A DNA stretch of 64,000 nt, taken from Pseudomonas asplenii (GTDB lineage Bacteria > Pseudomonadota > Gammaproteobacteria > Pseudomonadales > Pseudomonadaceae). Position numbers and translations under genes: made by a program. How positions within the stretch are numbered: position 1 is the first letter of the stretch; the number at the start of each line of letters is the position of its first letter. The DNA lies in the NCBI RefSeq assembly GCF_900105475.1, contig NZ_LT629777.1:5890001-5954000 (forward strand), written 5' to 3'. The notes below the pieces were generated by a model. The model searched no databases. It had not been told where the DNA came from and saw only the letters and a program-made list of their open reading frames with translations. Below are positions 13,023 to 37,810 of this stretch, piece after piece.

Positions 13023-13333
13023 GTCGCGAGGGCAGCAGCCGGGCTCAGCAGAGTCCGGCTATTGGCCTGCTGTCAGCAGGACTCGAACATGACGAGGGGT
13101 TGGCGCTCCGAGAGAGTCATTTCAACCCTGCTTTTTCGCTTCATGAGCGCGGTAGGCAACACTCCAGACTCTATCCCAGGGGCTCCCAGGCTGACAGGTA
13201 TAGGCTGCCTGGCGATCACCGACCTGCAACCGATACCGTCCGGATCAATGCCCCGTATACTTATCTCCAACCGATACCGTCAACCTGCGTATTCGCCGGC
13301 GCCAGCCACGCGGTCGCGTACCCGGACCCCACC
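13023..13333. other. Intergenic region with a 14-bp direct repeat upstream of the XRE gene
   Basis: No gene was recognised in these 311 bp. CAACCGATACCGTC occurs at 13227-13240 and again at 13268-13281. The 41-bp spacing is close to four helical turns, so both copies face the same side of the DNA. They lie 50-110 bp before the XRE-type start and may be its operator. Confidence 0.45.
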
Positions 13334-13591
13334 ATGCCCTGCGAAACTCCCCTCACCGATGAATCCCCACGCCGTTCGGTCGAAGGTGCTTCCCCTGCCC
13401 GCCTGCGGTTCGCCCAGAAATTCAAGCAGGCCCGCCAAGCCGCCGGTTTGACCCAGGCGGACGTGATGAGCCGCAGCGGCGTACAGCGCACCACGCTCTC
13501 GGACATCGAGCAAGGCAAGCACAACGTCACCATCGACATGATGGACCGCCTGGCGAACGCGGTGGGCTACCCGCTGGCCGAACTGCTCTAA
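13334..13591 (+). CDS. XRE-family transcriptional regulator
   Basis: An 85-residue protein with a Cro/CI helix-turn-helix at about residues 24-82 (Phe-Lys-Gln-Ala-Arg, Gly-Leu-Thr-Gln-Ala-Asp-Val, Thr-Leu-Ser-Asp-Ile-Glu-Gln-Gly-Lys). It lacks any sensor domain. An open frame extends further upstream, but the ATG at 13334 gives the normal length. It lies 195 bp before the N-hydroxylase gene in the same orientation, with a near-perfect 20-bp palindrome between them, so it is a plausible regulator of the N-N operon and possibly autoregulated through the repeats upstream. Confidence 0.75.
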   Translation: MPCETPLTDESPRRSVEGASPARLRFAQKFKQARQAAGLTQADVMSRSGVQRTTLSDIEQGKHNVTIDMMDRLANAVGYPLAELL

Positions 13592-13644: not shown

Positions 13645-13664
13645 ATGTCGGATATATCCTACAT
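13645..13664. promoter_or_regulatory. 20-bp near-perfect palindrome upstream of the N-hydroxylase operon
   Basis: ATGTCGGATATATCCTACAT is symmetric at 18 of 20 positions (core GGATATATCC). It lies about 120 bp before the N-hydroxylase ATG and 53 bp after the XRE stop. It is a strong operator candidate for the XRE protein or another regulator. No convincing -35/-10 pair was identified; TATAGG at 13700-13705 is a possible -10. Confidence 0.5.
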
Positions 13665-13785: not shown

Positions 13786-15102
13786 ATGAAAACATACGAC
13801 CTCATCGGTATTGGCATCGGTCCATTCAACCTCAGTCTTGCGGCATTGGCAGAACCCACCGGCCTGCAAACGCTGTTCCTGGACAAGCGGGACACGTTCG
13901 CCTGGCACCCCGGAATGCTGTTATCCAATGGTCAGTTGCAGGTTTCCCCGCTCAAGGATTGCGTCACCCTGGCCTCTCCGACCAGCCGCTATTCCTTTCT
14001 GAATTACCTCGCCGAGCATCGCCGCCTGTACAGCTTCATCAACAAGGGCGGCGCGTCGACCTCGCGCAAGGAGTTCGCCGACTATTACGGCTGGGTGGCG
14101 CGGCAACTCTCCAACCTGCGCTTCGCCCAGGAAGTGCTGGATGTGGTCGAGTCCGCCGAGGGCTACACGATCATCACCGCCGAGCAGAGCTACCAGGCCA
14201 GAGCAGTCGTCATCGGTGTCGGAATCACCCCCCGGGTTCCCGAGTGCGCGCGGCCCTGGCTGGGCAACGCCATCTACCACGTGGCGGACTTTCTCCACCG
14301 CGAAGCCATCCAGCCCGGCGAGCAGGTGCTGGTGGTCGGCGGCGGCCAAAGCGGCGCCGAAGCCGTCGAGCAACTGCTGGGCAACCCATCGATGGGGGCG
14401 CTCACCTGGGTCACTTCGCGCTCGAACCTGTTCGCCATGGATGACAATGCGTTCGTCAACGAGGCCTTCTGCCCCGCCTACAACCAGCGCTTCCAGACCC
14501 TGCCCATGGCCCAGCGCAGTCACGCGGTGCAGCAGGAGCGGCTGACCAGCGACGGCATCTCGGCGGACCTGTGCAACCGGCTCTATGAACAACTGTATGA
14601 GCGCCATGTCGGCCACGAGCAGCGCCAGGCCATCGATATCCTGCAATCGGCCGTGCTCGATGGGCTCGAACCGGAGGGTCGGCGCTGGCGCGCACGGCTC
14701 AGATCGTTGAGCAGCGGACGCCAGCGCACCGTCGTGGTCGACCGGGTGATTCTCGCCACCGGTTTTCAGCCCTGCCCCCAACCCTATGTCGATACCCTGC
14801 TCGCCAACGCGCAGCGCGACGGCGGGCAACCGCTGATCGACGGCAGCTACCGCGTGCAGTTCGCCACGCCCATGCCGGGCCCGGTGTATCTGCAGAACCG
14901 CAGCATCGTCCAGCACGGACTGCAGTCGGTGAACCTGTCGATGGTCGCCTACCGCAACAGCCGCATCCTCAACGACCTGCTCGGCTACGAATACTTTCAG
15001 GCCGAGCCGGACACACCGATGTTCAGCCATATCGACGCGCTGACCGACACGCCGGCCCGACAGATGGAACCCCGGCACGCCCTCAGCCTCGTGCAGTTCT
15101 GA
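13786..15102 (+). CDS. Lysine/ornithine N-monooxygenase (SidA/IucD/PvdA family)
   Basis: A 438-residue flavin N-hydroxylase that probably converts L-lysine to N6-hydroxylysine (or ornithine to N5-hydroxyornithine) with FAD, NADPH and O2. The FAD motif Gly8-Ile-Gly-Ile-Gly12-Pro-Phe-Asn15, the NADPH motif Gly185-Gly-Gly-Gln-Ser-Gly190 and the late Ala324-Thr-Gly-Phe motif are all present. The start at 13786 puts the FAD motif at the normal position; the frame is open 27 codons upstream. Such genes usually sit with siderophore NRPSs, but none is present. Five further genes follow, including a cupin and a MetRS-like gene, so a role in N-N bond formation is inferred. Confidence 0.85.
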   Translation: MKTYDLIGIGIGPFNLSLAALAEPTGLQTLFLDKRDTFAWHPGMLLSNGQLQVSPLKDCVTLASPTSRYSFLNYLAEHRRLYSFINKGGASTSRKEFADYYGWVARQLSNLRFAQEVLDVVESAEGYTIITAEQSYQARAVVIGVGITPRVPECARPWLGNAIYHVADFLHREAIQPGEQVLVVGGGQSGAEAVEQLLGNPSMGALTWVTSRSNLFAMDDNAFVNEAFCPAYNQRFQTLPMAQRSHAVQQERLTSDGISADLCNRLYEQLYERHVGHEQRQAIDILQSAVLDGLEPEGRRWRARLRSLSSGRQRTVVVDRVILATGFQPCPQPYVDTLLANAQRDGGQPLIDGSYRVQFATPMPGPVYLQNRSIVQHGLQSVNLSMVAYRNSRILNDLLGYEYFQAEPDTPMFSHIDALTDTPARQMEPRHALSLVQF

Positions 15103-15134
15103 CTTTGCCGCCCACACCGCCGGAGCACCGCGCC

Positions 15135-16337
15135 ATGCCCGACACACCCGAGCCACTGCCTGACCGGCTGCCGCCCTCCGCGTTTCTGCCGTTCCTGATC
15201 GCGGGCGTCATCATCGCCGGCGCCTACGGCTCAAGCTTCCTGTTGCCGGAGTACCTGCAGGTGATAGGGTTCGATAACGCCACGGTCGGTCGCGTGATCT
15301 CCACCGGGATGATCAGCACCATCCTGTGCTGTTGTCTGGCCGGCTGGACAGCACAACGCATCGGGGTCATGGGCAGCATCACCGTCGCCTGCCTCGCCAT
15401 GGCCCTGGCCATGTTCGCCTTCGCCTGCGTGGCGCAGGTGCCGGGCGCGGCGTATCCGGGAGGGCTGTTGCTGGGGGTGGGCTGGTCGGTGTTCTACATC
15501 CTCGCGCCGCTGCAGATCATCCACCACCTGCGCCCCGCTGCCCGCCTGCAGTACTTCACGATCATGTCCGGGGCGCAGATGGCAGGACTGGGCCTGACCA
15601 CGCCGCTGGGACACCTGGTCGTCAAGGCAAGCGCCAGCTACGGCTTGTTCTACGCACTGCTGGGCGCGGCCTGCCTGGTATCGGCCCTGTGCGTGATGCT
15701 CGCACGGCGCGCCATGACCCACCTGCCCACGTCCGCTATCCGGCAAGTGTCGCTGCGGCTCGTCGATCTCAAGGCACTGCTCGGCAGCCGGGCCGCCTTG
15801 CCGATCGCGATGATCGTGCTGGGCGCCTGCATCTTCTCGGGCCTGTCCACCTACCAGGCCAGCTATGCACAGATGCGCCAACTGAAAGCCGACAACTTTT
15901 TCGTCACCTTTACCCTCACCAGCGTGCTGCTGCGGTTCTCGGTGGCCCGCTCGATCGGCCGCCTGCCGCTGCAACGCCTGGCAATCGGCCTGTTCCTGTT
16001 CACCAGCCTGTCGCTGGGGATGTTTCTGCTCAACGATGACAGCACGCTGGTCTACCTCTCGGCGACGGTGATTTTCGCCATCGGCTATGGCCTGAGCTAC
16101 TCCACGCTCAACAGTCTGGCGGTCAATCAGGCGGAAGCGAACGGCCTTTCGCCTGCGGTCACTTCGCAAGTCTTCACTCTGGGCTACTTCATTGGCCTGT
16201 TCGGTTTTCCCTCGATTGGCGGCGCGATCATGAGTCGCTGGGGCGTCGATTGGGTGTTGGCGTGTCTGCTCGTCGCCGCACTGACCAACCTGGCACTGAT
16301 GGCGAGTACCCGCAGCAGCAAGATGCTGACGGTTTGA
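15135..16337 (+). CDS. MFS transporter
   Basis: A 400-residue, 12-helix major facilitator protein. The first hydrophobic segment starts near residue 17, and the loop after helix 2 carries a shortened form of the MFS motif. ATG 15135 is chosen because GGAG lies 10 nt upstream; a TTG at 15105 is also in frame. It is the second gene of the N-hydroxylase operon, only 32 bp after it. Export of the pathway product (self-protection) is the simplest role, but precursor uptake cannot be excluded. Confidence 0.8.
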   Translation: MPDTPEPLPDRLPPSAFLPFLIAGVIIAGAYGSSFLLPEYLQVIGFDNATVGRVISTGMISTILCCCLAGWTAQRIGVMGSITVACLAMALAMFAFACVAQVPGAAYPGGLLLGVGWSVFYILAPLQIIHHLRPAARLQYFTIMSGAQMAGLGLTTPLGHLVVKASASYGLFYALLGAACLVSALCVMLARRAMTHLPTSAIRQVSLRLVDLKALLGSRAALPIAMIVLGACIFSGLSTYQASYAQMRQLKADNFFVTFTLTSVLLRFSVARSIGRLPLQRLAIGLFLFTSLSLGMFLLNDDSTLVYLSATVIFAIGYGLSYSTLNSLAVNQAEANGLSPAVTSQVFTLGYFIGLFGFPSIGGAIMSRWGVDWVLACLLVAALTNLALMASTRSSKMLTV

Positions 16338-16370
16338 AACTGGTTAATCACCCGTAAAGGAGTAGCGTTG

Positions 16371-17150
16371 ATGTTGTCTGAAGCTCAGAAAACCCAGTGG
16401 CACGACGAAGGCTACATCCGGCTGGAAGGCTTTTTCCCACCGGAAGATCTGGCGCGACTGTCCGAGTTCACCCAGGAAATCGGGCGCTGGAACATCAGCG
16501 ACGATCGCTGGATGATGTGGTTCGAAAAGACCGACCAGGGCGAGAAGATCACCTCCAAGGTCGAGAACTTCATCGAATTTCACCCAGGCCTGCAAGAGGT
16601 GCTGCTGCAGGACGAGCGCATCACCCGCACGGTCGAATACCTGCTCGACGAAAAGACCCGTCGCCTGAAGGAACTGCTGATCTTCAAGTACCCGGACAGC
16701 GGTGGTTTCCGCCCCCACCAGGACATCTACCACATCCCGCACAAGCTCAAGGAGCGGATGGTCCATGCGGTGGTCGCCGTGGCCATCGACGACGCGGACG
16801 CCAGCAACGGCGGTCTGTTCTTCAGTCCCGGCCAGCACAAAAAGGGCGTGTTCCCCATGGACGAGGGCGGCGTGATCCTACCGGAAGTCGCCGAGCAGTT
16901 CAGCTGGACGGAAGTGCCGTGGCGCGCCGGCGACATCTTCATCTTCGACGACTACGCCCCGCATTACTCCTTGCCGAACAAGAGCGACCGCTCGCGCCGC
17001 ACCTTGTACCTGGTCTATCAACGCGCCTCGACGGGGGGCCCGACCCGCGATGAGTACAACGCCATGAAACGCGCCTACAACCCGCCGGAAGGCCGGGTGG
17101 CCGACCTGGAAAACCTCAAGCCGTCCAACGGCATCTTCTACCGCGACTGA
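16371..17150 (+). CDS. PhyH-type Fe(II)/2-oxoglutarate oxygenase
   Basis: A 259-residue phytanoyl-CoA-dioxygenase-family oxygenase. The iron triad is visible as His116-Gln-Asp118 (in Arg-Pro-His-Gln-Asp-Ile-Tyr-His) and His198 (in Tyr-Ala-Pro-His-Tyr-Ser), with Arg residues of Ser-Arg-Arg-Thr-Leu-Tyr about ten residues later for 2-oxoglutarate. The start follows AAGGAG at 8 nt; a TTG lies one codon upstream. Bacterial PhyH enzymes hydroxylate, desaturate or halogenate small metabolites; the Asp of the triad indicates hydroxylation or desaturation rather than halogenation. It probably tailors the operon's product. Confidence 0.82.
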   Translation: MLSEAQKTQWHDEGYIRLEGFFPPEDLARLSEFTQEIGRWNISDDRWMMWFEKTDQGEKITSKVENFIEFHPGLQEVLLQDERITRTVEYLLDEKTRRLKELLIFKYPDSGGFRPHQDIYHIPHKLKERMVHAVVAVAIDDADASNGGLFFSPGQHKKGVFPMDEGGVILPEVAEQFSWTEVPWRAGDIFIFDDYAPHYSLPNKSDRSRRTLYLVYQRASTGGPTRDEYNAMKRAYNPPEGRVADLENLKPSNGIFYRD

Positions 17151-17169
17151 GCGACTGGGTGAGATCGAC

Positions 17170-17499
17170 ATGCATGTAAAGCCTATTGAGCCGCAGATGA
17201 TGCGCCCGGAGTACGGCGTGCTGGTTTGCCGCTTGCTGGATCATCTGCCCGCCAGCCTGAGCCCGAAGTTCGGCATGTCGATTGTCGAAGTCGAACCCGG
17301 TGGGGCGGTCGATCTGCACTCGCATCACGAACATGAAGTGTGGGTATTGATGGAGGGCGAAGGCATTTTCCAGGAGCAGGAACGGCAAATGCCGGTGACC
17401 GGCTCGATGCTGTTCTACATGCAGCCGCATAGCCCACACGCCATTCACAACACACATTCACAACAGCCGCTGAAATTCCTGGCAGTTTGGTGGGACTAA
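17170..17499 (+). CDS. Small metal-binding cupin, probable N-N bond-forming partner
   Basis: A 109-residue single-domain cupin. Motif 1 is complete: His50-x-His52-x3-Glu56 followed by Glu-Gly. Motif 2 is Pro-His-Ser-Pro-His90-Ala-Ile-His-Asn94, supplying the fourth ligand. In hydrazine synthetases a zinc-binding cupin domain rearranges an O-aminoacyl N6-hydroxylysine ester into an N-N bond, and is fused to a MetRS-like domain. Here the MetRS-like gene starts 1 bp after the cupin stop, so the two are a split version and probably form a complex. The activity is inferred from context; the cupin alone could have other roles. Confidence 0.75.
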   Translation: MHVKPIEPQMMRPEYGVLVCRLLDHLPASLSPKFGMSIVEVEPGGAVDLHSHHEHEVWVLMEGEGIFQEQERQMPVTGSMLFYMQPHSPHAIHNTHSQQPLKFLAVWWD

Positions 17500-17500
17500 C

Positions 17501-19081
17501 ATGACTGACACACAAAAAACCTACTTCATCTGTCCTGCGCCGCCCTGCCCCAATGGCAAATTGCACCTGGGGCACATCGCCGGCGTTTACCTGCTGGCCG
17601 ATATCTACGCAAGGTTCCAGCGCCTGGCCGGGCATCGTGCTTTCTACGTCACCGGCTCCGACGAACATGGCACCTACACACTGGTCAAGGCGCAAAAGCT
17701 GCAACGCCCGGTCGATGACGTGGCCCAGATGCACAATCGGGAAATCCTCGCCTGCCTGGGCGCCCTCGGCATCGAACCGGATGAGTTCGTGCGCACCACC
17801 AGCGCTGATCATGTCGAGAACAGCCTGGCCATCTACCAGACGCTCAAGGACAACGGTTTCATCACCGTCAAGGACGGCGTGCAGCTGTATTGCGAAACCT
17901 GCGCCGAATTCGCCGCCGACTCGCTGGCCAGCGGGCTCTGCCCGGACTGCTCGGCACCGACCGACAGCAACCTGTGCGAAAACTGCGGGCTGGCCGTCCC
18001 CCATGCCCGCCTGAAACAACCGCGGCATGCGCCCTGCTCGGGGCCGCTGAGCCTGAGGCCGATCCGTCAGGCCCACCTGGATATCGAAAAGCTTGCGCCG
18101 ACCCTGCAGCAGGCAATCGTCGACAGCCAGTGGCCCGAGCCCATCAAACACCTGGAGTTGAGCTGGCTGCGCGAGTCGCTGCGCTCGCTGCCGATGTCCC
18201 GGCACTTCGACCGGGGCGTCGTTCTGGACGACCCCGAGGACGTCGCCGGGCAAACCCTGCTGACCTGGTTCGAGGGCCTGTGGTGCTTCGACACCGGCAT
18301 CCGCCGGCTGTGTGCCCGCGAGGCGAGCGACTACCAGCAGGTGCTCGCCAGCCCGGACAGCCGGGTGGTGTTCTTCATGGGCCAGGACAACCGTTTCTAC
18401 TACACCGTGGGCGTCACCGCGAGCCTGCTGGGCAGGGGCTTCGCCGCGCCGTTCAACCAGAGTATCCAGGACTTCTCGACACTCGAAGGCTCGAAGTTCT
18501 CCACCAGCCGCGATCACGTCATCTGGGCCGATGAAGTGGCCAAGGTCGTCGACCAGAACGTCTTGCGGCTGTACCTGGCGAGCATCGCCAAACCCTTCGG
18601 CAACCAGGACAACGAGTTCGAACTCGAAGGCCTGATGGCCGCCGCGCAGCAGTTGCATGACTGGGAGGCAAGGCTGCGCGCTCATGCCCGACAGGCACGG
18701 CAGGTCGTCAACGAACCCTTGCCGGCGCGACTGGCCGAGCAGGTCGAACGCTACACACACGCAATGGACGGACTGGCGTTCTGGGATGCCCTGCAGGCGA
18801 TCGAGGACTTCCTCGACAACGCCGACATCACCGACACCGCATCACAGTGGCAAGCGACCCAGGTGTCGGCCTTGCTGGGCATGCTAGCGCCCTTCATCCC
18901 GCAGTGGACCCAGCGCTATGCCGCGCTGTACTTCGGCGCGGATTGGGCAGCGGCCAGCCAGCCGCTGTCAGTGCCCGCGTGGCCGTTACCGCAGGCCTCC
19001 TTCCCGATGATCGATGCGCATCTGCCCGATGCCTACATTCGCGCGTACAAGCAACGTTTCCGCGCCGCCGCCATCGCCTGA
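17501..19081 (+). CDS. Methionyl-tRNA-synthetase-like amino-acid activating protein
   Basis: A 526-residue class I synthetase homologue, most like MetRS without its C-terminal dimer domain. The HIGH motif is His22-Leu-Gly-His25. Three Cys-x2-Cys pairs (131/134, 147/150, 159/162) match the zinc insert. The KMSKS loop is altered to Lys332-Phe-Ser-Thr-Ser336, so the second lysine is lost. A reduced helical C-terminal domain follows. Housekeeping MetRS is essential and would not sit in this operon. In known hydrazine pathways the MetRS-like domain adenylates an amino acid and esterifies N6-hydroxylysine. Start ATG follows the cupin stop by 1 bp. Confidence 0.85.
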   Translation: MTDTQKTYFICPAPPCPNGKLHLGHIAGVYLLADIYARFQRLAGHRAFYVTGSDEHGTYTLVKAQKLQRPVDDVAQMHNREILACLGALGIEPDEFVRTTSADHVENSLAIYQTLKDNGFITVKDGVQLYCETCAEFAADSLASGLCPDCSAPTDSNLCENCGLAVPHARLKQPRHAPCSGPLSLRPIRQAHLDIEKLAPTLQQAIVDSQWPEPIKHLELSWLRESLRSLPMSRHFDRGVVLDDPEDVAGQTLLTWFEGLWCFDTGIRRLCAREASDYQQVLASPDSRVVFFMGQDNRFYYTVGVTASLLGRGFAAPFNQSIQDFSTLEGSKFSTSRDHVIWADEVAKVVDQNVLRLYLASIAKPFGNQDNEFELEGLMAAAQQLHDWEARLRAHARQARQVVNEPLPARLAEQVERYTHAMDGLAFWDALQAIEDFLDNADITDTASQWQATQVSALLGMLAPFIPQWTQRYAALYFGADWAAASQPLSVPAWPLPQASFPMIDAHLPDAYIRAYKQRFRAAAIA

Positions 19082-19097
19082 GACCGAGGAGAAGCCC

Positions 19098-20279
19098 ATG
19101 TACTCGTTACGCAGTCAGCGCGCCAGCGGCTTTGGTGCCTTCGATTACTCATCGACCAAACAGACCCTCAACCTGGCCATCGGGATGCCCGATCCGGTGA
19201 CCTTTGCCGGCCTCCCCCTGGCGAGTTCATCATTGCCGGAGACGGGCATCGGCATCGGCGACTTGCTCCAGTACACCGACTCCCAGGGCCTGCCCGAGCT
19301 GCGCCAGGCCCTTGCCCAGCGCCACAAGGTGGCGCTGGAGAATATCCAGGTGACCGCCGGGGCCTCGCAGGCGTTGACGTTGCTGGCGGACCTGCTGATC
19401 GATCCGGGCGACATCGTCCTGACCGAAGACCCCAGCTACCTCGGCGCGCTGCGGATCTTTTCCGTGGCGGGCGCACAGATCATTCAACTGGGGATGGATC
19501 GCGACGGGGTCGATCTCGATCAGTTGGCCCACACGTTGACGAGCACCACCGGCAAGGTAGCGCTCTACTACACCTCGCCGGTCTTCCATAACCCGACCGG
19601 ATGCTGTTTTTCCATCGAGCGCATGCAGGCCGTGGCACAGTTGCTGAGCCGTCACGGGGTACCGCTGATCCAGGACCTGGTCTACTCGGAACTGCCGTAC
19701 CAGGCCCAGCGTCCGAACGTCCTGCCGGCCGGCCAAGGCGTGATCAACGTGCACAGCAGCTCGAAGATTGCCGGCGCCGGCTTGCGGCTCGGCTGGGTGA
19801 TCGCCGAGCCCCGGCTCATCCAGGGCCTGGCACAACTCAAGCTCGACGGCGGTGTCAGCCCCCTGGTCAGCAACCTGGTGCTCAGCCTGCTGCGCAACGA
19901 GGCTTTCGATTCGCACATCGACGACCTGCGCGAACACTACCGGACCAAACGCGACCTGATGGCCGATCTGCTCAAGTCCTGCACATTCTGCGCGCAGGAT
20001 TACCTGCTGCCGACCGGCGGTTTCTCGTTCTGGGTCAGGATCGCCGACGGGGTCGAGCCGGCGGCGCTCATCGACAAGGCCCGGGAGCTGGGCAACGTGC
20101 GCCTGTCCAACGGCCTCCACAATGGCCCGCAGTCGCGACGCTACGTGCGCCTGTGCTTCAGTTACCTGTCGCCTGCGCAGATCCGGCATGGCCTGCAGAT
20201 CATCGAAGAAGCCTATCGCTCGCTGATTCCCCGGGTACATCGCCCCGATGCCGAGCGCGTGCGGCAGCCAGACGCTTGA
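19098..20279 (+). CDS. PLP-dependent class I/II aminotransferase (LysN/2-aminoadipate type)
   Basis: A 393-residue fold-type I aminotransferase. The PLP-binding lysine is Lys223 in Ser-Ser-Ser-Lys-Ile-Ala-Gly-Ala-Gly-Leu-Arg-Leu-Gly-Trp. His-Asn-Pro-Thr-Gly (near residue 170) and the C-terminal Arg-Leu-Cys-Phe-Ser substrate-binding arginine are also present. Sequence style resembles the LysN / MocR-aminotransferase branch. It is the last operon gene, 16 bp after the MetRS-like stop with GAGGAG upstream. It may process the amino-adipate-type product released when the lysine scaffold is cleaved, or modify the final amino acid. Its 3' end overlaps the convergent MocR gene by 80 bp. Confidence 0.83.
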   Translation: MYSLRSQRASGFGAFDYSSTKQTLNLAIGMPDPVTFAGLPLASSSLPETGIGIGDLLQYTDSQGLPELRQALAQRHKVALENIQVTAGASQALTLLADLLIDPGDIVLTEDPSYLGALRIFSVAGAQIIQLGMDRDGVDLDQLAHTLTSTTGKVALYYTSPVFHNPTGCCFSIERMQAVAQLLSRHGVPLIQDLVYSELPYQAQRPNVLPAGQGVINVHSSSKIAGAGLRLGWVIAEPRLIQGLAQLKLDGGVSPLVSNLVLSLLRNEAFDSHIDDLREHYRTKRDLMADLLKSCTFCAQDYLLPTGGFSFWVRIADGVEPAALIDKARELGNVRLSNGLHNGPQSRRYVRLCFSYLSPAQIRHGLQIIEEAYRSLIPRVHRPDAERVRQPDA

Positions 20280-21633
20280 AAAACTCCGTTGCACGCGGAT
20301 CGCCAGCGTAGGCGACATTGATGCGTATCCAGTCACTACGCTGGCCGTCCAGGTAATAGGCATCGCCACTGGACAGCATGACGTCACAGGCCGCGGCAAC
20401 GGCATTGAGCTGGGCAAAATCGAACGGCGCGCAACGCGCCCAGACGAACATGCCACCGACCGGTTCGGCGAAGGTTTCCCAGCCATAGTCTTCCAGGCGC
20501 TTGAGGGTCTGGGCCATGGCCTTGTCCAGGCGATCACGCAAGCGTTGCACCAGCTTGCGATAGGCACCGTTGCCGAGCAGCGTGGCAACCACGCTCTCGA
20601 CGAACCGCGAAGTGCCCATGCTCGTCACCGACTTGAGCTGGGCCAGACCACGTACCCTTTCGGCGCTGGAGACCAGGTAGCCGACCCGTAACGATCCGCT
20701 CAAGGTCTTGGAAAAGCTGGCGACGTAGATGACCCGGTTCTGCGAATCCAGACTGGCCAGGCGTGTTCCGGAGCCGTTGTACAAGTCGGCGTAGGTGTCG
20801 TCCTCGACGATCTGAAAATCGTGGATCTCGGCCAACTGCAACAGCCGGTGCGCGATCGCCGGGCGCAGCGAGGTGCCAGTGGGATTGTGGTACATGCTGT
20901 TGATGAAAAGGCATTGCGGCCGATGGTCTTGCAGCAAGACTTCCAGCTTACGGATATCAGGTCCGTCCTGCTCCCTGGGTACGCTCAGCATGCGGATGCC
21001 ACTGGCCTGCAGCAGATTGAACAGATTGGGGTAGCCCGGGGACTCGACCACGACGCAATCGCCCGGCTTCAACAGGCTCCTGACCAGCAGGTCCATGGCA
21101 TGGCTCACCCCCTGGGTGGTCAGGATCTGCTGATGATCGACCCGGACATCCATTCGCTCGAGGCGCTTGTGAATCTGCTGGCGCAGGAGCGGCGAACCCA
21201 GCGGCGTACCATAGCTGAACAGGCTGTCGGGATCGGTGCGGGTCACCTGGCGAATGGCAAAGCCGATGGCCTGCGTCTCCCGCCAGTCCTCGGGCACCCA
21301 GCCACAGCACAGGTTCAGCCGAGTCTTGCAGAACTGGGTCAACGGCTGCCACTGCGCATCGTTGATCTCCTGCGCATCTGGCTGACTGCCCACCTCTGCG
21401 GCGACCTGTTCGGCCAGGAAAAACCCCTTGCCCTGGCGGGACTCCAGAATCCCCATCGACACCAGTCGATCATAGGCTTCGATGACCCGCGAATGACTGA
21501 CCTGTTTCTCCCGGGCCAACTGCCGGATCGACGGCAAGCGCGTGCCGGGACGAATCCGCTGCACCTCGATCCACTGACAGAGGCCATTGACCAGTTGCTG
21601 CGTCAGGGAAAGGTCATCGTCCTTGCTTACCAT
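20200..21633 (-). CDS. MocR/PdxR-type GntR regulator with aminotransferase-like domain
   Basis: About 477 residues. An N-terminal GntR winged helix (Gly-Thr-Arg-Leu-Pro-Ser-Ile-Arg-Gln-Leu-Ala, within the first 80 residues) is joined by a linker to a complete aminotransferase-like domain with a PLP lysine in Ser-Phe-Ser-Lys-Thr-Leu. MocR proteins sense PLP or PLP-amino-acid adducts and control vitamin B6 or amino-acid genes. Possible starts are ATG 21633 (used), GTG 21645 or GTG 21657. It converges on and overlaps the aminotransferase gene by 80 bp and is divergent from the DUF7673-like gene. Regulation of the neighbouring operon is likely but inferred. Confidence 0.85.
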   Translation of the reverse strand: MVSKDDDLSLTQQLVNGLCQWIEVQRIRPGTRLPSIRQLAREKQVSHSRVIEAYDRLVSMGILESRQGKGFFLAEQVAAEVGSQPDAQEINDAQWQPLTQFCKTRLNLCCGWVPEDWRETQAIGFAIRQVTRTDPDSLFSYGTPLGSPLLRQQIHKRLERMDVRVDHQQILTTQGVSHAMDLLVRSLLKPGDCVVVESPGYPNLFNLLQASGIRMLSVPREQDGPDIRKLEVLLQDHRPQCLFINSMYHNPTGTSLRPAIAHRLLQLAEIHDFQIVEDDTYADLYNGSGTRLASLDSQNRVIYVASFSKTLSGSLRVGYLVSSAERVRGLAQLKSVTSMGTSRFVESVVATLLGNGAYRKLVQRLRDRLDKAMAQTLKRLEDYGWETFAEPVGGMFVWARCAPFDFAQLNAVAAACDVMLSSGDAYYLDGQRSDWIRINVAYAGDPRATEFFKRLAAARARHRGDVPGESASDRLLR

Positions 21634-21655
21634 GAAGTCTTTCACTGAAACATCC

Positions 21656-21707
21656 ACTGTTCGGGTTTATCAGGAGAACAGTTAAGCATAAAAGGCAGAG
21701 AACTGTT
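21656..21707. promoter_or_regulatory. ACTGTTC/GAACAGT repeats between MocR gene and DUF7673-like gene
   Basis: ACTGTTC (21656-21662) and GAACAGT (21676-21682) form an inverted repeat; AACAGTT (21678-21684) also pairs with AACTGTT (21701-21707). Mixed inverted and direct half-sites close to the start of a divergent gene are typical of MocR operators. The first copy lies at the upstream GTG start candidate, supporting the downstream ATG at 21633. Confidence 0.5.
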
Positions 21708-33827: not shown

Positions 33828-35084
33828 CTACATATGCGCAATCAGCGCATCGCCGAACCCGGATGACGACACCAGTTTGGCGCCGTCCATCAGGCGCTCG
33901 AAGTCATAGGTCACGGTCTTGGCACCGATGGCGCCGTTGGTGCCCTTGATGATCAGGTCGGCCGCTTCGGTCCACCCCAGATGGCGCAGCATCATTTCTG
34001 CGGACAGGATCAACGAACCGGGGTTGACCTGGTCCTTGCCGGCATACTTGGGCGCGGTGCCATGGGTCGCCTCGAACATCGCCACGGTGTCGGACAGGTT
34101 GGCGCCCGGCGCGATACCGATACCACCCACCTCGGCCGCCAGGGCATCGGACAGATAGTCACCATTGAGGTTAAGCGTGGCGATCACGTCATACTCGGCC
34201 GGACGCAGGAGGATCTGCTGGAGCATGGCATCGGCAATGGCGTCCTTGACCACCACATTGCGGCCGGTCCTGGGGTTTTTGAACTGCATCCAGGGGCCGC
34301 CGTCGAGCAGGGTCGCGCCGAACTCCTCGGCCGCCACCTCATAGGCCCACTCCTTGAAGGCACCTTCGGTGAACTTCATGATGTTGCCCTTGTGGACGAT
34401 GGTCAGCGACTTGCGATCGTTGTCGACCACATACTGCAGGGCCTTGCGCGCCAGGCGCTTGGTGCCTTCCTTCGATACCGGTTTGACGCCGATACCGCAG
34501 TCCTGGTCGAAACGGATCTTGGTCACGCCCATTTCTTCCTTGAGGAACTTGATGACCTTGTTCGCTTCCGGCGAACCGGCCTTCCACTCGATCCCGGCAT
34601 AGATGTCTTCGGAGTTCTCACGGAAGATCGTCATGTCGACGTCGCCAGGCTTTTTCACCGGGCTCGGCACGCCTTCGAACCAGCGCACCGGGCGCAGGCA
34701 GACATACAGGTCGAGCTGTTGGCGCAGGGCCACGTTGAGGGAGCGGATACCGCCGCCCACCGGCGTGGTCAGCGGGCCCTTGATGGACACCACGTAATCC
34801 TTGACCGCATCCAGGGTTTCCTGGGGCAGCCAGGTGTCCTGGTCATACACTTGAGTCGCCTTTTCGCCGGCATAAACCTCCATCCATGAGATCTTGCGTT
34901 TGCCGCCGTAAGCCTTTTCGACAGCAGCATCGACGACCTTGATCATCACCGGGCTGATGTCGATGCCAATCCCGTCACCTTCGATGAAAGGGATGATCGG
35001 GTGATCAGGAACATTGAGAGAGTGGTCTGCATTGACGGTGATTTTGTCTCCGACAGCTGGAACCTGAATCTTCTTGTATCCCAT
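33828..35084 (-). CDS. icd: NADP-dependent isocitrate dehydrogenase, dimeric type
   Basis: A 418-residue TCA-cycle enzyme oxidising isocitrate to 2-oxoglutarate. The substrate site Ser115-x-Asn117-x3-Arg121 and Arg131 are present; Ser115 corresponds to the residue phosphorylated by AceK in E. coli. The start at 35084 has GGAG 7 nt upstream; an ATG four codons earlier (35096) is less well placed. It is divergent from the unrelated monomeric isozyme idh. Together with aceA (11 kb away) this is the isocitrate branch point. Confidence 0.95.

Positions 35085-37810
<2,726 letters not shown>

What the first reader, a model, noticed from the sequence alone, without database searches (positions are those of the whole stretch)
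13786..20279. Compact operon predicted to make an N-N bond (hydrazine-type) natural product in Pseudomonas
Seen: six co-directional genes with short gaps encode an N-hydroxylase with intact FAD and NADPH motifs, an MFS transporter, a PhyH oxygenase, a cupin, a MetRS-like protein and an aminotransferase. Known: N6-lysine hydroxylase plus cupin plus MetRS-like protein is the hydrazine-forming set described in Streptomyces pathways such as s56-p1 and triacsin, where N6-hydroxylysine is joined to an amino acid and rearranged to an N-N bond. Inferred: this operon makes a small hydrazine, hydrazone or diazo amino-acid derivative. The absence of any NRPS or PKS, and the added PhyH and aminotransferase, suggest a product not yet described.
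Basis: partly seen in the sequence, partly recalled or inferred. Interest (0 to 1): 0.92.

Follow-up and report, generated by a model that had tools for sequence, protein, structure and literature searches.

The report
Shared hydrazine-making operon of plant bacteria
This Pseudomonas operon very probably builds and exports a small molecule with a rare nitrogen-nitrogen bond; close copies sit among the nodulation and nitrogen-fixation genes of legume-root bacteria, and a related gene set was already shown to be switched on in nodules, so a hydrazine-type compound may be made during that symbiosis.

Summary
The six-gene operon is real (NMO, MFS, PhyH, cupin, MetRS-like, aminotransferase; gaps 1-33 bp; dN/dS 0.08-0.22 against P. 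fuscovaginae). It is a split cupin/MetRS hydrazine synthetase with its N-hydroxylase. The cupin keeps PyrN's four tested residues at the same numbers (H50, H52, E56, H90). The NMO keeps carboxylate-binding residues that diamine hydroxylases lack and matches the RHA1 hydrazine-cluster NMO. The MetRS-like protein is a deep sister lineage of the other cupin-linked ones. The family is known, also in Pseudomonas (Por11).

New here: (1) the cassette is conserved in rhizobia, Paraburkholderia and Ralstonia; in three rhizobial genera 63 of 63 PhyH-positive genomes carry nodA (274 of 489 overall). (2) Some Bradyrhizobium copies have a predicted NifA/sigma54 promoter. The Lotus-symbiont version corresponds to R7A msi280, published as NifA2-dependent in nodules. 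(3) In two Mesorhizobium clusters an intact PhyH gene sits in the wreck of the FAD oxidase that normally follows hydrazine formation (wreck dN/dS 0.89, PhyH 0.23), so PhyH probably replaces it.

Product, second amino acid and PhyH reaction are inferred. New variant of a known kind; interest 0.8.

The parts
13646..13663 (.). Conserved palindrome TGTCGGATATATCCTACA, candidate operator of the operon
   Evidence: Unchanged in the window, L005 and L006 inside a diverged spacer; only match in the window, 0 in 100 shuffles. Function not tested.
13220..13591 (+). XRE-type HTH regulator just upstream (start codon uncertain)
   Evidence: HTH_31 7e-13; also upstream of the operon in L005/L006.
13786..15102 (+). 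Flavin N-hydroxylase (NMO), predicted to act on an alpha-amino acid, most likely L-lysine N6
   Evidence: PF13434 342 bits; K57, N225, SDGIS 255-259 and N383-L-S385 shared with the NMO of the Rhodococcus RHA1 hydrazine cluster.
15132..16337 (+). MFS transporter, predicted exporter (ATG at 15135)
   Evidence: PF07690; found in 34 of 38 related loci.
16371..17150 (+). PhyH-type Fe(II)/2-oxoglutarate oxygenase, predicted to act on the hydrazine intermediate
   Evidence: PF05721 121 bits; H116, D118, H198 and R209 invariant in 17 of 17 aligned PhyH; 93% identical to L005, 65-73% to the 15 copies from other genera.
17170..17499 (+). Stand-alone Zn cupin half of the hydrazine synthetase
   Evidence: H50, H52, E56, H90 at PyrN numbering (PMC8664883); matches RHS1 structure 5uqp, E=2.5e-7.
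17501..19081 (+). MetRS-like ATP-dependent ligase half of the hydrazine synthetase
   Evidence: HLGH 22-25 and KFSTSR 332-337; groups with cupin-linked MetRS-like proteins apart from canonical MetRS, SH-aLRT 100; the only close copy in the genome, the next match being 26% identical.
19098..20279 (+). Fold-type I PLP aminotransferase, accessory
   Evidence: PF00155; nearest families MppQ and MocR aminotransferase domains, solved relatives include 2-aminoadipate aminotransferase; in 24 of 38 loci.
20200..21657 (-). Convergent MocR-like (GntR + aminotransferase domain) regulator, overlapping the operon end by 80 bp
   Evidence: PF00392 + PF00155; below the PdxR cut-off, 259 of 320 bits; conserved next to the operon in L005/L006.

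Best explanation
The operon is a compact, exported hydrazine pathway built on a split cupin/MetRS hydrazine synthetase. Steps: (1) NMO makes an N-hydroxy amino acid, most likely N6-hydroxy-L-lysine. (2) The MetRS-like protein activates a second amino acid with ATP and forms an O-aminoacyl ester with the hydroxylamine. (3) The zinc cupin rearranges this ester to an N-N bond. (4) PhyH, an Fe/2-oxoglutarate oxygenase, oxidises the hydrazine conjugate in the slot that a Spb39-type FAD oxidase fills in related clusters; hydroxylation next to nitrogen would free an alpha-hydrazino acid and an aldehyde. (5) The aminotransferase, where present, handles the carbonyl or alpha-amino side product, and the MFS protein exports the product. 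Steps 1-3 follow from family membership and conserved catalytic residues; step 4 is inferred from a natural gene replacement (about 50% for this reaction type); step 5 is a guess from the families. The same cassette is a symbiosis-island trait of rhizobia and in part probably NifA-controlled there.
For: Cupin H50/H52/E56/H90 equal PyrN's tested residues (PMC8664883). Match to RHS1 5uqp. NMO keeps K57/N225/S385, which diamine hydroxylases lack, and shares SDGIS and N-L-S with the NMO beside RHS1. MetRS tree: 36 MetRS-like rows apart from 3 canonical, SH-aLRT 100. NMO, PhyH, cupin and MetRS are all present in 34 of 38 related loci, in that order in all 34. PhyH 70% identical in the Lotus-symbiont cluster although its NMO and MetRS are 34% and 27%. 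FAD oxidase remnant beside intact PhyH in L008 and L057, in L057 with an oxidase C-terminal piece on the far side of PhyH; dN/dS 0.89 for the remnant against 0.23 for PhyH. 63 of 63 PhyH+ rhizobial genomes are nodA+. R7A msi280 promoter sequence found upstream of the L057 NMO; msi280::lacZ 371.6 Miller units in wild-type nodules, 7.3 without nifA2 (PMC3538637, passages).
Against: No biochemistry on any member of this exact MetRS clade was seen. By PDB bit score the NMO is nearest to diamine hydroxylases (6xbb 224 bits), and the residue aligned with PvdA's equivalent of SidA N323 is Ser, so the substrate is not proven to be lysine. The MetRS clade sits on a long branch (1.18) as sister to, not inside, the other lineages, and its pocket is unlike those of the others, so the second amino acid is open. 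Loss of the oxidase in two related clusters does not prove that PhyH does its job. The window's own promoter region has no NifA-type site. Disrupting msi280 left the R7A symbiosis scored '+'.
Confidence: 0.8

Rival explanations
1. The N-N conjugate is made but not cleaved: PhyH hydroxylates or desaturates its carbon chain, or makes a hydrazone, and the aminotransferase then closes a ring, giving an intact N-N amino acid or heterocycle.
For: Nearest NCBIfam model of PhyH is a hydroxylase (methylphosphonate hydroxylase, 178 of 500 bits); the aminotransferase is related to MppQ, an enduracididine biosynthesis enzyme.
Against: In L008/L057 PhyH stands in the place of a FAD oxidase whose relatives cleave the conjugate and which is left as a remnant; the aminotransferase is missing from 13 of the 37 related loci whose contig reaches the place, three of these being decayed copies.
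Confidence: 0.35
2. The operon makes a hydroxamate or other siderophore, the NMO being a siderophore hydroxylase.
For: PF13434 includes siderophore NMOs; best solved matches are desferrioxamine-type and putrescine hydroxylases.
Against: No NRPS seen in the window and no acyltransferase among the six operon proteins; K57/N225 kept and SDGIS shared with hydrazine-cluster NMOs; pairing with cupin and MetRS in 34 of 38 loci.
Confidence: 0.05
3. The MetRS-like protein is a peptide ligase or a spare MetRS giving resistance, and no N-N bond is formed (the 2010 prediction was a modified Met-Lys dipeptide).
For: PMC2922099 predicted a peptide ligase (passages); distant plasmid-borne MetRS copies exist.
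Against: Homologous pairs were later shown to make hydrazines without tRNA (PMC8664883); tested cupin residues intact.
Confidence: 0.06
4. The N-hydroxylated partner is a diamine such as cadaverine or putrescine rather than lysine.
For: NMO bit scores are highest against diamine hydroxylases; hydrazine synthetases taking N-hydroxyputrescine and N-hydroxydiaminopropane are reported.
Against: K57 and N225, whose equivalents SsDesB lacks, are present in 13 of 13 NMOs aligned, the window's included.
Confidence: 0.12

Closest known systems
Spb38/Spb39/Spb40 (s56-p1) and related hydrazinoacetate pathways (triacsin, azaserine, N-nitroglycine)
   Same: NMO plus cupin/MetRS hydrazine synthetase (papers PMC11705231 and PMC13274452).
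   Different: Fused di-domain enzyme and FAD oxidase there; here split enzyme, PhyH in the oxidase's place, added MFS and aminotransferase, no NRPS or PKS seen in the window.
RHS1 cluster of Rhodococcus jostii RHA1 (pRHL1) and PyrN
   Same: RHA1: stand-alone cupin (its ORF on pRHL1 matches 5uqp end to end), MetRS-like and NMO; shared catalytic residues.
   Different: RHA1/PyrN join N6-OH-Lys to Glu and are linked to a saccharopine dehydrogenase (PMC8664883); identities to the window are NMO 38%, cupin 29%, MetRS 29%.
Por9/Por11 of Pseudomonas orientalis
   Same: Characterised hydrazine synthetase system in the same genus (read in a review).
   Different: Sequences not available here; the review reports compound 28 or N4-hydroxy-DABA joined to glycine. 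Same clade or not: not tested.
NMO-PhyH-fused cupin/MetRS cluster of Lotus mesorhizobia (R7A msi280 region; Q8KGM6 of R7A listed among identified hydrazine synthetases)
   Same: Shares the PhyH (70%) and the NMO/cupin/MetRS logic.
   Different: NMO 34% and MetRS 27% identical; enzyme fused; PhyH acquired by recombination within an FAD oxidase gene. That Q8KGM6 is this fused protein is inferred, not checked by sequence.

Membership tests
cupin/MetRS hydrazine synthetase | MetRS-like protein fused to or next to a small cupin | tested here: met
   1 bp apart in the window; cupin hit in 38 of 38 related loci, only partial in L016 and L019.
cupin/MetRS hydrazine synthetase | Metal/catalytic residues H(or D)50, H52, E56, H90 of the cupin | tested here: met
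   Identical residues and numbers against PyrN in PMC8664883; also in the 7 other split and 3 fused cupins aligned; the RHA1 cupin did not align cleanly at position 50.
cupin/MetRS hydrazine synthetase | Adjacent flavin N-hydroxylase | tested here: met
   Present in the window and in 34 of 38 related loci.
cupin/MetRS hydrazine synthetase | Intact ATP-site motifs of the MetRS-like domain | tested here: met
   HLGH at 22 and KFSTSR at 332.
cupin/MetRS hydrazine synthetase | Groups with other cupin-linked MetRS-like proteins, not with canonical MetRS | tested here: met
   SH-aLRT 100, but as a separate deep lineage; only 3 canonical rows used, and the set includes stand-alone rows of unknown function.
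cupin/MetRS hydrazine synthetase | tRNA-independent N-N bond formation, zinc | not testable with these tools
   Needs enzyme assay.
Spb39-type hydrazinoacetate pathway | FAD oxidase that cleaves the conjugate | tested here: not met
   None among the six genes. No match of the R. rhizogenes oxidase in the own genome (the tool warns there was no positive control). By tblastn the same query found the S. meliloti homologue at 38%.
NRPS-type siderophore cluster | NRPS beside the NMO | tested here: not met
   Longest of 55 picked ORFs in 64 kb is 904 aa; 29 proteins scanned with Pfam, no NRPS.
NifA/RpoN regulon (window operon) | TGT-N10-ACA plus -24/-12 element upstream | tested here: not met
   No TGT-N10-ACA and no TGGCAC-type element in 700 bp upstream of the NMO, one loose match only.
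NifA/RpoN regulon (rhizobial relatives) | TGT-N10-ACA plus -24/-12 element upstream | tested here: inconclusive
   Both, spaced 100 bp, in 5 of 14 Bradyrhizobium loci with an upstream region; -24/-12 alone in 3 more; one shared ancestry. Both also upstream of the L057 NMO.

The most novel reading that the evidence does not exclude
Legume-nodule bacteria and plant-associated Pseudomonas share a transferable cassette that makes an exported alpha-hydrazino acid. It would be freed by a new class of hydrazine-releasing enzyme (Fe/2-oxoglutarate PhyH), would be made in nitrogen-fixing nodules under NifA, and would act on the host by trapping PLP enzymes such as ACC synthase, a hydrazine counterpart of rhizobitoxine.
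Probability: 0.15. Interest if true: 0.95.

Novelty: new variant of a known kind. Interest (0 to 1): 0.8.

Why it matters
No hydrazine or other N-N metabolite of legume symbiosis turned up in the listings of the paper searches made here. The genes are in well-studied symbiosis plasmids and islands, one related operon already has nodule expression data and a mutant, and the PhyH replacement gives a clean enzymological question, so all three claims are directly testable with existing strains.

Tried and rejected
AlphaFold model of PhyH from 15 close sequences: mean pLDDT 40.6, unusable, so no fold search was run. Nod-box search with a recalled consensus upstream of 25 operons: best 15 of 25 bases, which I do not count as a site; a recalled tts-box pattern gave no match. 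GC profile: operon 0.60-0.67, neighbours mostly 0.57-0.64 with a dip to 0.47-0.53 at 23-25 kb, no clear foreign signal. Pocket reading of the MetRS-like protein against RHA1 (Glu) and others did not settle the second amino acid; glycine is only a guess. Nodule transcriptome paper PMC3973600, passages only: nothing relevant. PMC13061610 and PMC13274452, passages only: terms for rhizobia and Pseudomonas do not occur. The diamine-substrate idea from PDB scores was weakened by the active-site residues.

Results against the reading: L016, L019 and R. etli CFN42 p42d keep the MetRS gene but show no PhyH or NMO hit. Two Mesorhizobium-type PhyH copies are truncated with a stop. In G811 PhyH lies 3.2 Mb from nodA. 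Six of 14 Bradyrhizobium loci show no TGGCAC-type -24/-12 element. The pattern for a full NifA promoter also matched 8 other places in the 924 kb of loci (13 in all). In one search, with composition statistics, the oxidase remnant scored 4e-5 in L008 and was not found in L057 at 1e-3; the stronger values (9e-15 and 8e-11 with the S. meliloti query) and used short target stretches and no composition correction. The NMO tail in L057 is weak (24 residues, 2e-4).
Full report
OBSERVATION. Pfam confirms each family. The genome is a single 6.53 Mb contig, and the nearest named loci are P. fuscovaginae (83-93% protein identity). All six genes are under purifying selection against P. fuscovaginae L005, dN/dS 0.08-0.22. 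A MocR-like regulator gene converges on the operon and overlaps it by 80 bp. An XRE regulator lies upstream, and an 18-bp palindrome at 13646-13663 is unchanged in three Pseudomonas copies although the spacer around it has diverged.

HYDRAZINE SYNTHETASE. Published work (PMC8664883; abstract, introduction, first results and sections 10, 11, 12 and 24 read, other parts as passages) defines the family: a MetRS-like part makes an unstable ester between an amino acid and N6-hydroxylysine, and a zinc cupin turns it into an N-N bond, without tRNA; in some bacteria the two parts are separate proteins. In PyrN the residues H50, H52, E56 and H90 were mutated, and the E56A variant made no product. The window cupin has H50, H52, E56 and H90 and matches the solved RHS1 cupin 5uqp at E=2.5e-7, 8th of 29 matches. 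The MetRS-like protein has HLGH and KFSTSR. It is the only close copy in its genome; the next match, which I take as the true MetRS, is 26% identical. In a 39-row tree, 36 MetRS-like rows separate from 3 rows that I take as canonical MetRS with SH-aLRT 100. The window clade (12 rows, 100) is sister to the other 24, which include the RHA1 partner of RHS1, the fused enzymes and some stand-alone proteins of unknown function (quick tree, long branches).

N-HYDROXYLASE. By PDB score the NMO is closest to diamine hydroxylases. However, the passages of PMC8009421 that I read name K107, N293, N323 and S469 of SidA as ornithine contacts, conserved in PvdA and KtzI, and say that SsDesB lacks the equivalents. 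By the PvdA alignment the window NMO has K57, N225 and S385 at three of these positions and Ser at the fourth. It shares SDGIS and N-L-S with the NMO of the RHA1 cluster, whose product is a lysine-glutamate conjugate; the cupin ORF in that RHA1 stretch matches 5uqp end to end. An amino acid substrate, most likely lysine, is therefore favoured.

CONSERVATION. One scan of 84,980 species genomes gave 48 loci; 38 encode this MetRS type (45% identity or more). NMO was found in 34, MFS in 34, PhyH in 36, cupin in 38 and the aminotransferase in 24. All six were found in 22: 20 in the window order and 2 with MFS first. The order NMO-PhyH-cupin-MetRS holds in 34 of the 34 loci that have all four. Carriers are Pseudomonas, Ralstonia, Paraburkholderia, Rhizobium, Mesorhizobium and Bradyrhizobium; Collimonas proteins of the MetRS and PhyH types appear in the protein searches, their gene order was not looked at. 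Among 398 sampled Pseudomonas genomes only the window's own had PhyH at E<=1e-40. A search of 5.8 billion proteins (515 candidates scored) returned 26 relatives of PhyH at E<=1e-15, all 61-93% identical, so this PhyH looks like a compact family, perhaps bound to the cassette.

SYMBIOSIS. In the plasmid collection all 34 records with this PhyH (E<=1e-30) are Rhizobium (32) or Mesorhizobium (2), and 29 list Phaseolus as source. In R. etli p42d the MetRS gene lies between nodA/nifHDK and nodD2/nodD3, although PhyH and NMO are not found there. In whole genomes, PhyH-positive counts (E<=1e-60) are 19 of 195, 30 of 146 and 14 of 148 in three genera; I take these as Bradyrhizobium, Mesorhizobium and Rhizobium because match positions equal those of named loci. 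All 63 carry nodA, against 274 of 489 overall (Fisher 6e-6, 3e-6 and 4e-6; genomes are related, so these are not true probabilities). Where both genes are on one contig, PhyH lies 61-363 kb from nodA in 9 of 10 cases of the first genus and 3.2 Mb away in the tenth; in the 22 such cases of the other two genera the distance is 6-419 kb.

NIFA. Of 14 Bradyrhizobium loci with an upstream region, 5 have TGT-N10-ACA whose start lies exactly 100 bp before a TGGCAC-N5-TTGC element, the latter 174-308 bp upstream of the NMO match, and 3 more have the second element. These regions are homologous, so this is one promoter seen several times. The Lotus symbiont Mesorhizobium 131-3-5 has NMO-PhyH-fused cupin/MetRS next to fdxB and acdS. 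The exact -24/-12 string that PMC3538637 gives for R7A gene msi280 (L-lysine 6-monooxygenase) lies upstream of its NMO, with a NifA-type site before it. That paper (passages and parts of its tables seen) reports msi280::lacZ at 371.6 units in nodules, 268.9 without nifA1 and 7.3 without nifA2; the disrupted strain is scored '+'. Thus a cluster with this PhyH is very probably expressed in nodules, but is not needed for fixation under the conditions used. The window's own upstream region shows no such site.

PHYH REPLACES AN FAD OXIDASE. In R. rhizogenes and S. meliloti SM11 the order is NMO - FAD oxidase - fused cupin/MetRS, like Spb38/39/40. In L008 and L057 the stretch between NMO and PhyH holds the N-terminal 145-200 residues of such an oxidase, then the tail of a window-type NMO (clear in L008, faint in L057), then an intact PhyH. 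In L057 a piece of the oxidase's C-terminal end (residues 280-349, 39% identity, E=5e-6 on a short target) lies on the far side of PhyH, so the block sits inside the old oxidase gene. DNA homology to L007 runs from the NMO tail through PhyH, and in the L008/L057 comparison on into a piece of cupin. Between L008 and L057 dN/dS is 0.17 for NMO, 0.89 for the oxidase remnant and 0.23 for PhyH. PhyH is 70% identical to the window's, while the L057 NMO and MetRS are only 34% and 27% identical. A recombination thus brought in one intact gene, PhyH, and cost the oxidase. The simplest reading is that PhyH takes over the oxidation of the hydrazine conjugate. Whether it cleaves next to nitrogen or only hydroxylates is not shown.

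KNOWN AND NEW. Known: the trio since 2010 (PMC2922099, passages), with PhyH-type enzymes mentioned among associated oxygenases; many members since, including Pseudomonas, Mesorhizobium and Ralstonia enzymes listed as identified hydrazine synthetases (PMC11705231, section 15). Not seen in the listings of my paper searches: this six-gene cassette, its tie to nodulation, or PhyH as a substitute for the oxidase. Only open-licence papers were searched, so it may be in print elsewhere. The idea that an alpha-hydrazino acid would trap plant PLP enzymes rests on general knowledge of hydrazino acids, not on any call.

Noticed in passing
window 13646-13663: Near-perfect palindrome TGTCGGATATATCCTACA, unchanged in three Pseudomonas copies, beside an XRE regulator gene; likely operator.
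   Followed up: partly
window 20200-21657 (-); L007, L009, L055, L056: A MocR-type regulator adjoins the cassette in Pseudomonas (convergent) and in some Mesorhizobium/Rhizobium (divergent from MFS), but the two types are only 26-27% identical.
   Followed up: partly
L059 (S. meliloti SM11 plasmid pSmeSM11b): NMO - FAD oxidase - MetRS-like protein - NRPS cluster on a plasmid of an alfalfa symbiont; reminds of azaserine-type clusters.
   Followed up: no
one search hits H118-H122 (Klebsiella variicola, Pantoea agglomerans and P. ananatis plasmids): Adjacent cupin and class I tRNA ligase genes on plasmids, probably further split hydrazine synthetases.
   Followed up: no
Escherichia and Salmonella plasmid records: Many plasmids carry a distant metG-like MetRS (about 24% identity over full length); why is unclear.
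   Followed up: no
L054 (R. etli CFN42 p42d), L016, L019: MetRS gene kept near nodA and nodD2 although NMO and PhyH are not found: decay of the cassette in some bean symbionts.
   Followed up: partly
window 33831-37807: Divergent genes for two unrelated isocitrate dehydrogenases (Iso_dh type and monomeric IDH) side by side.
   Followed up: no
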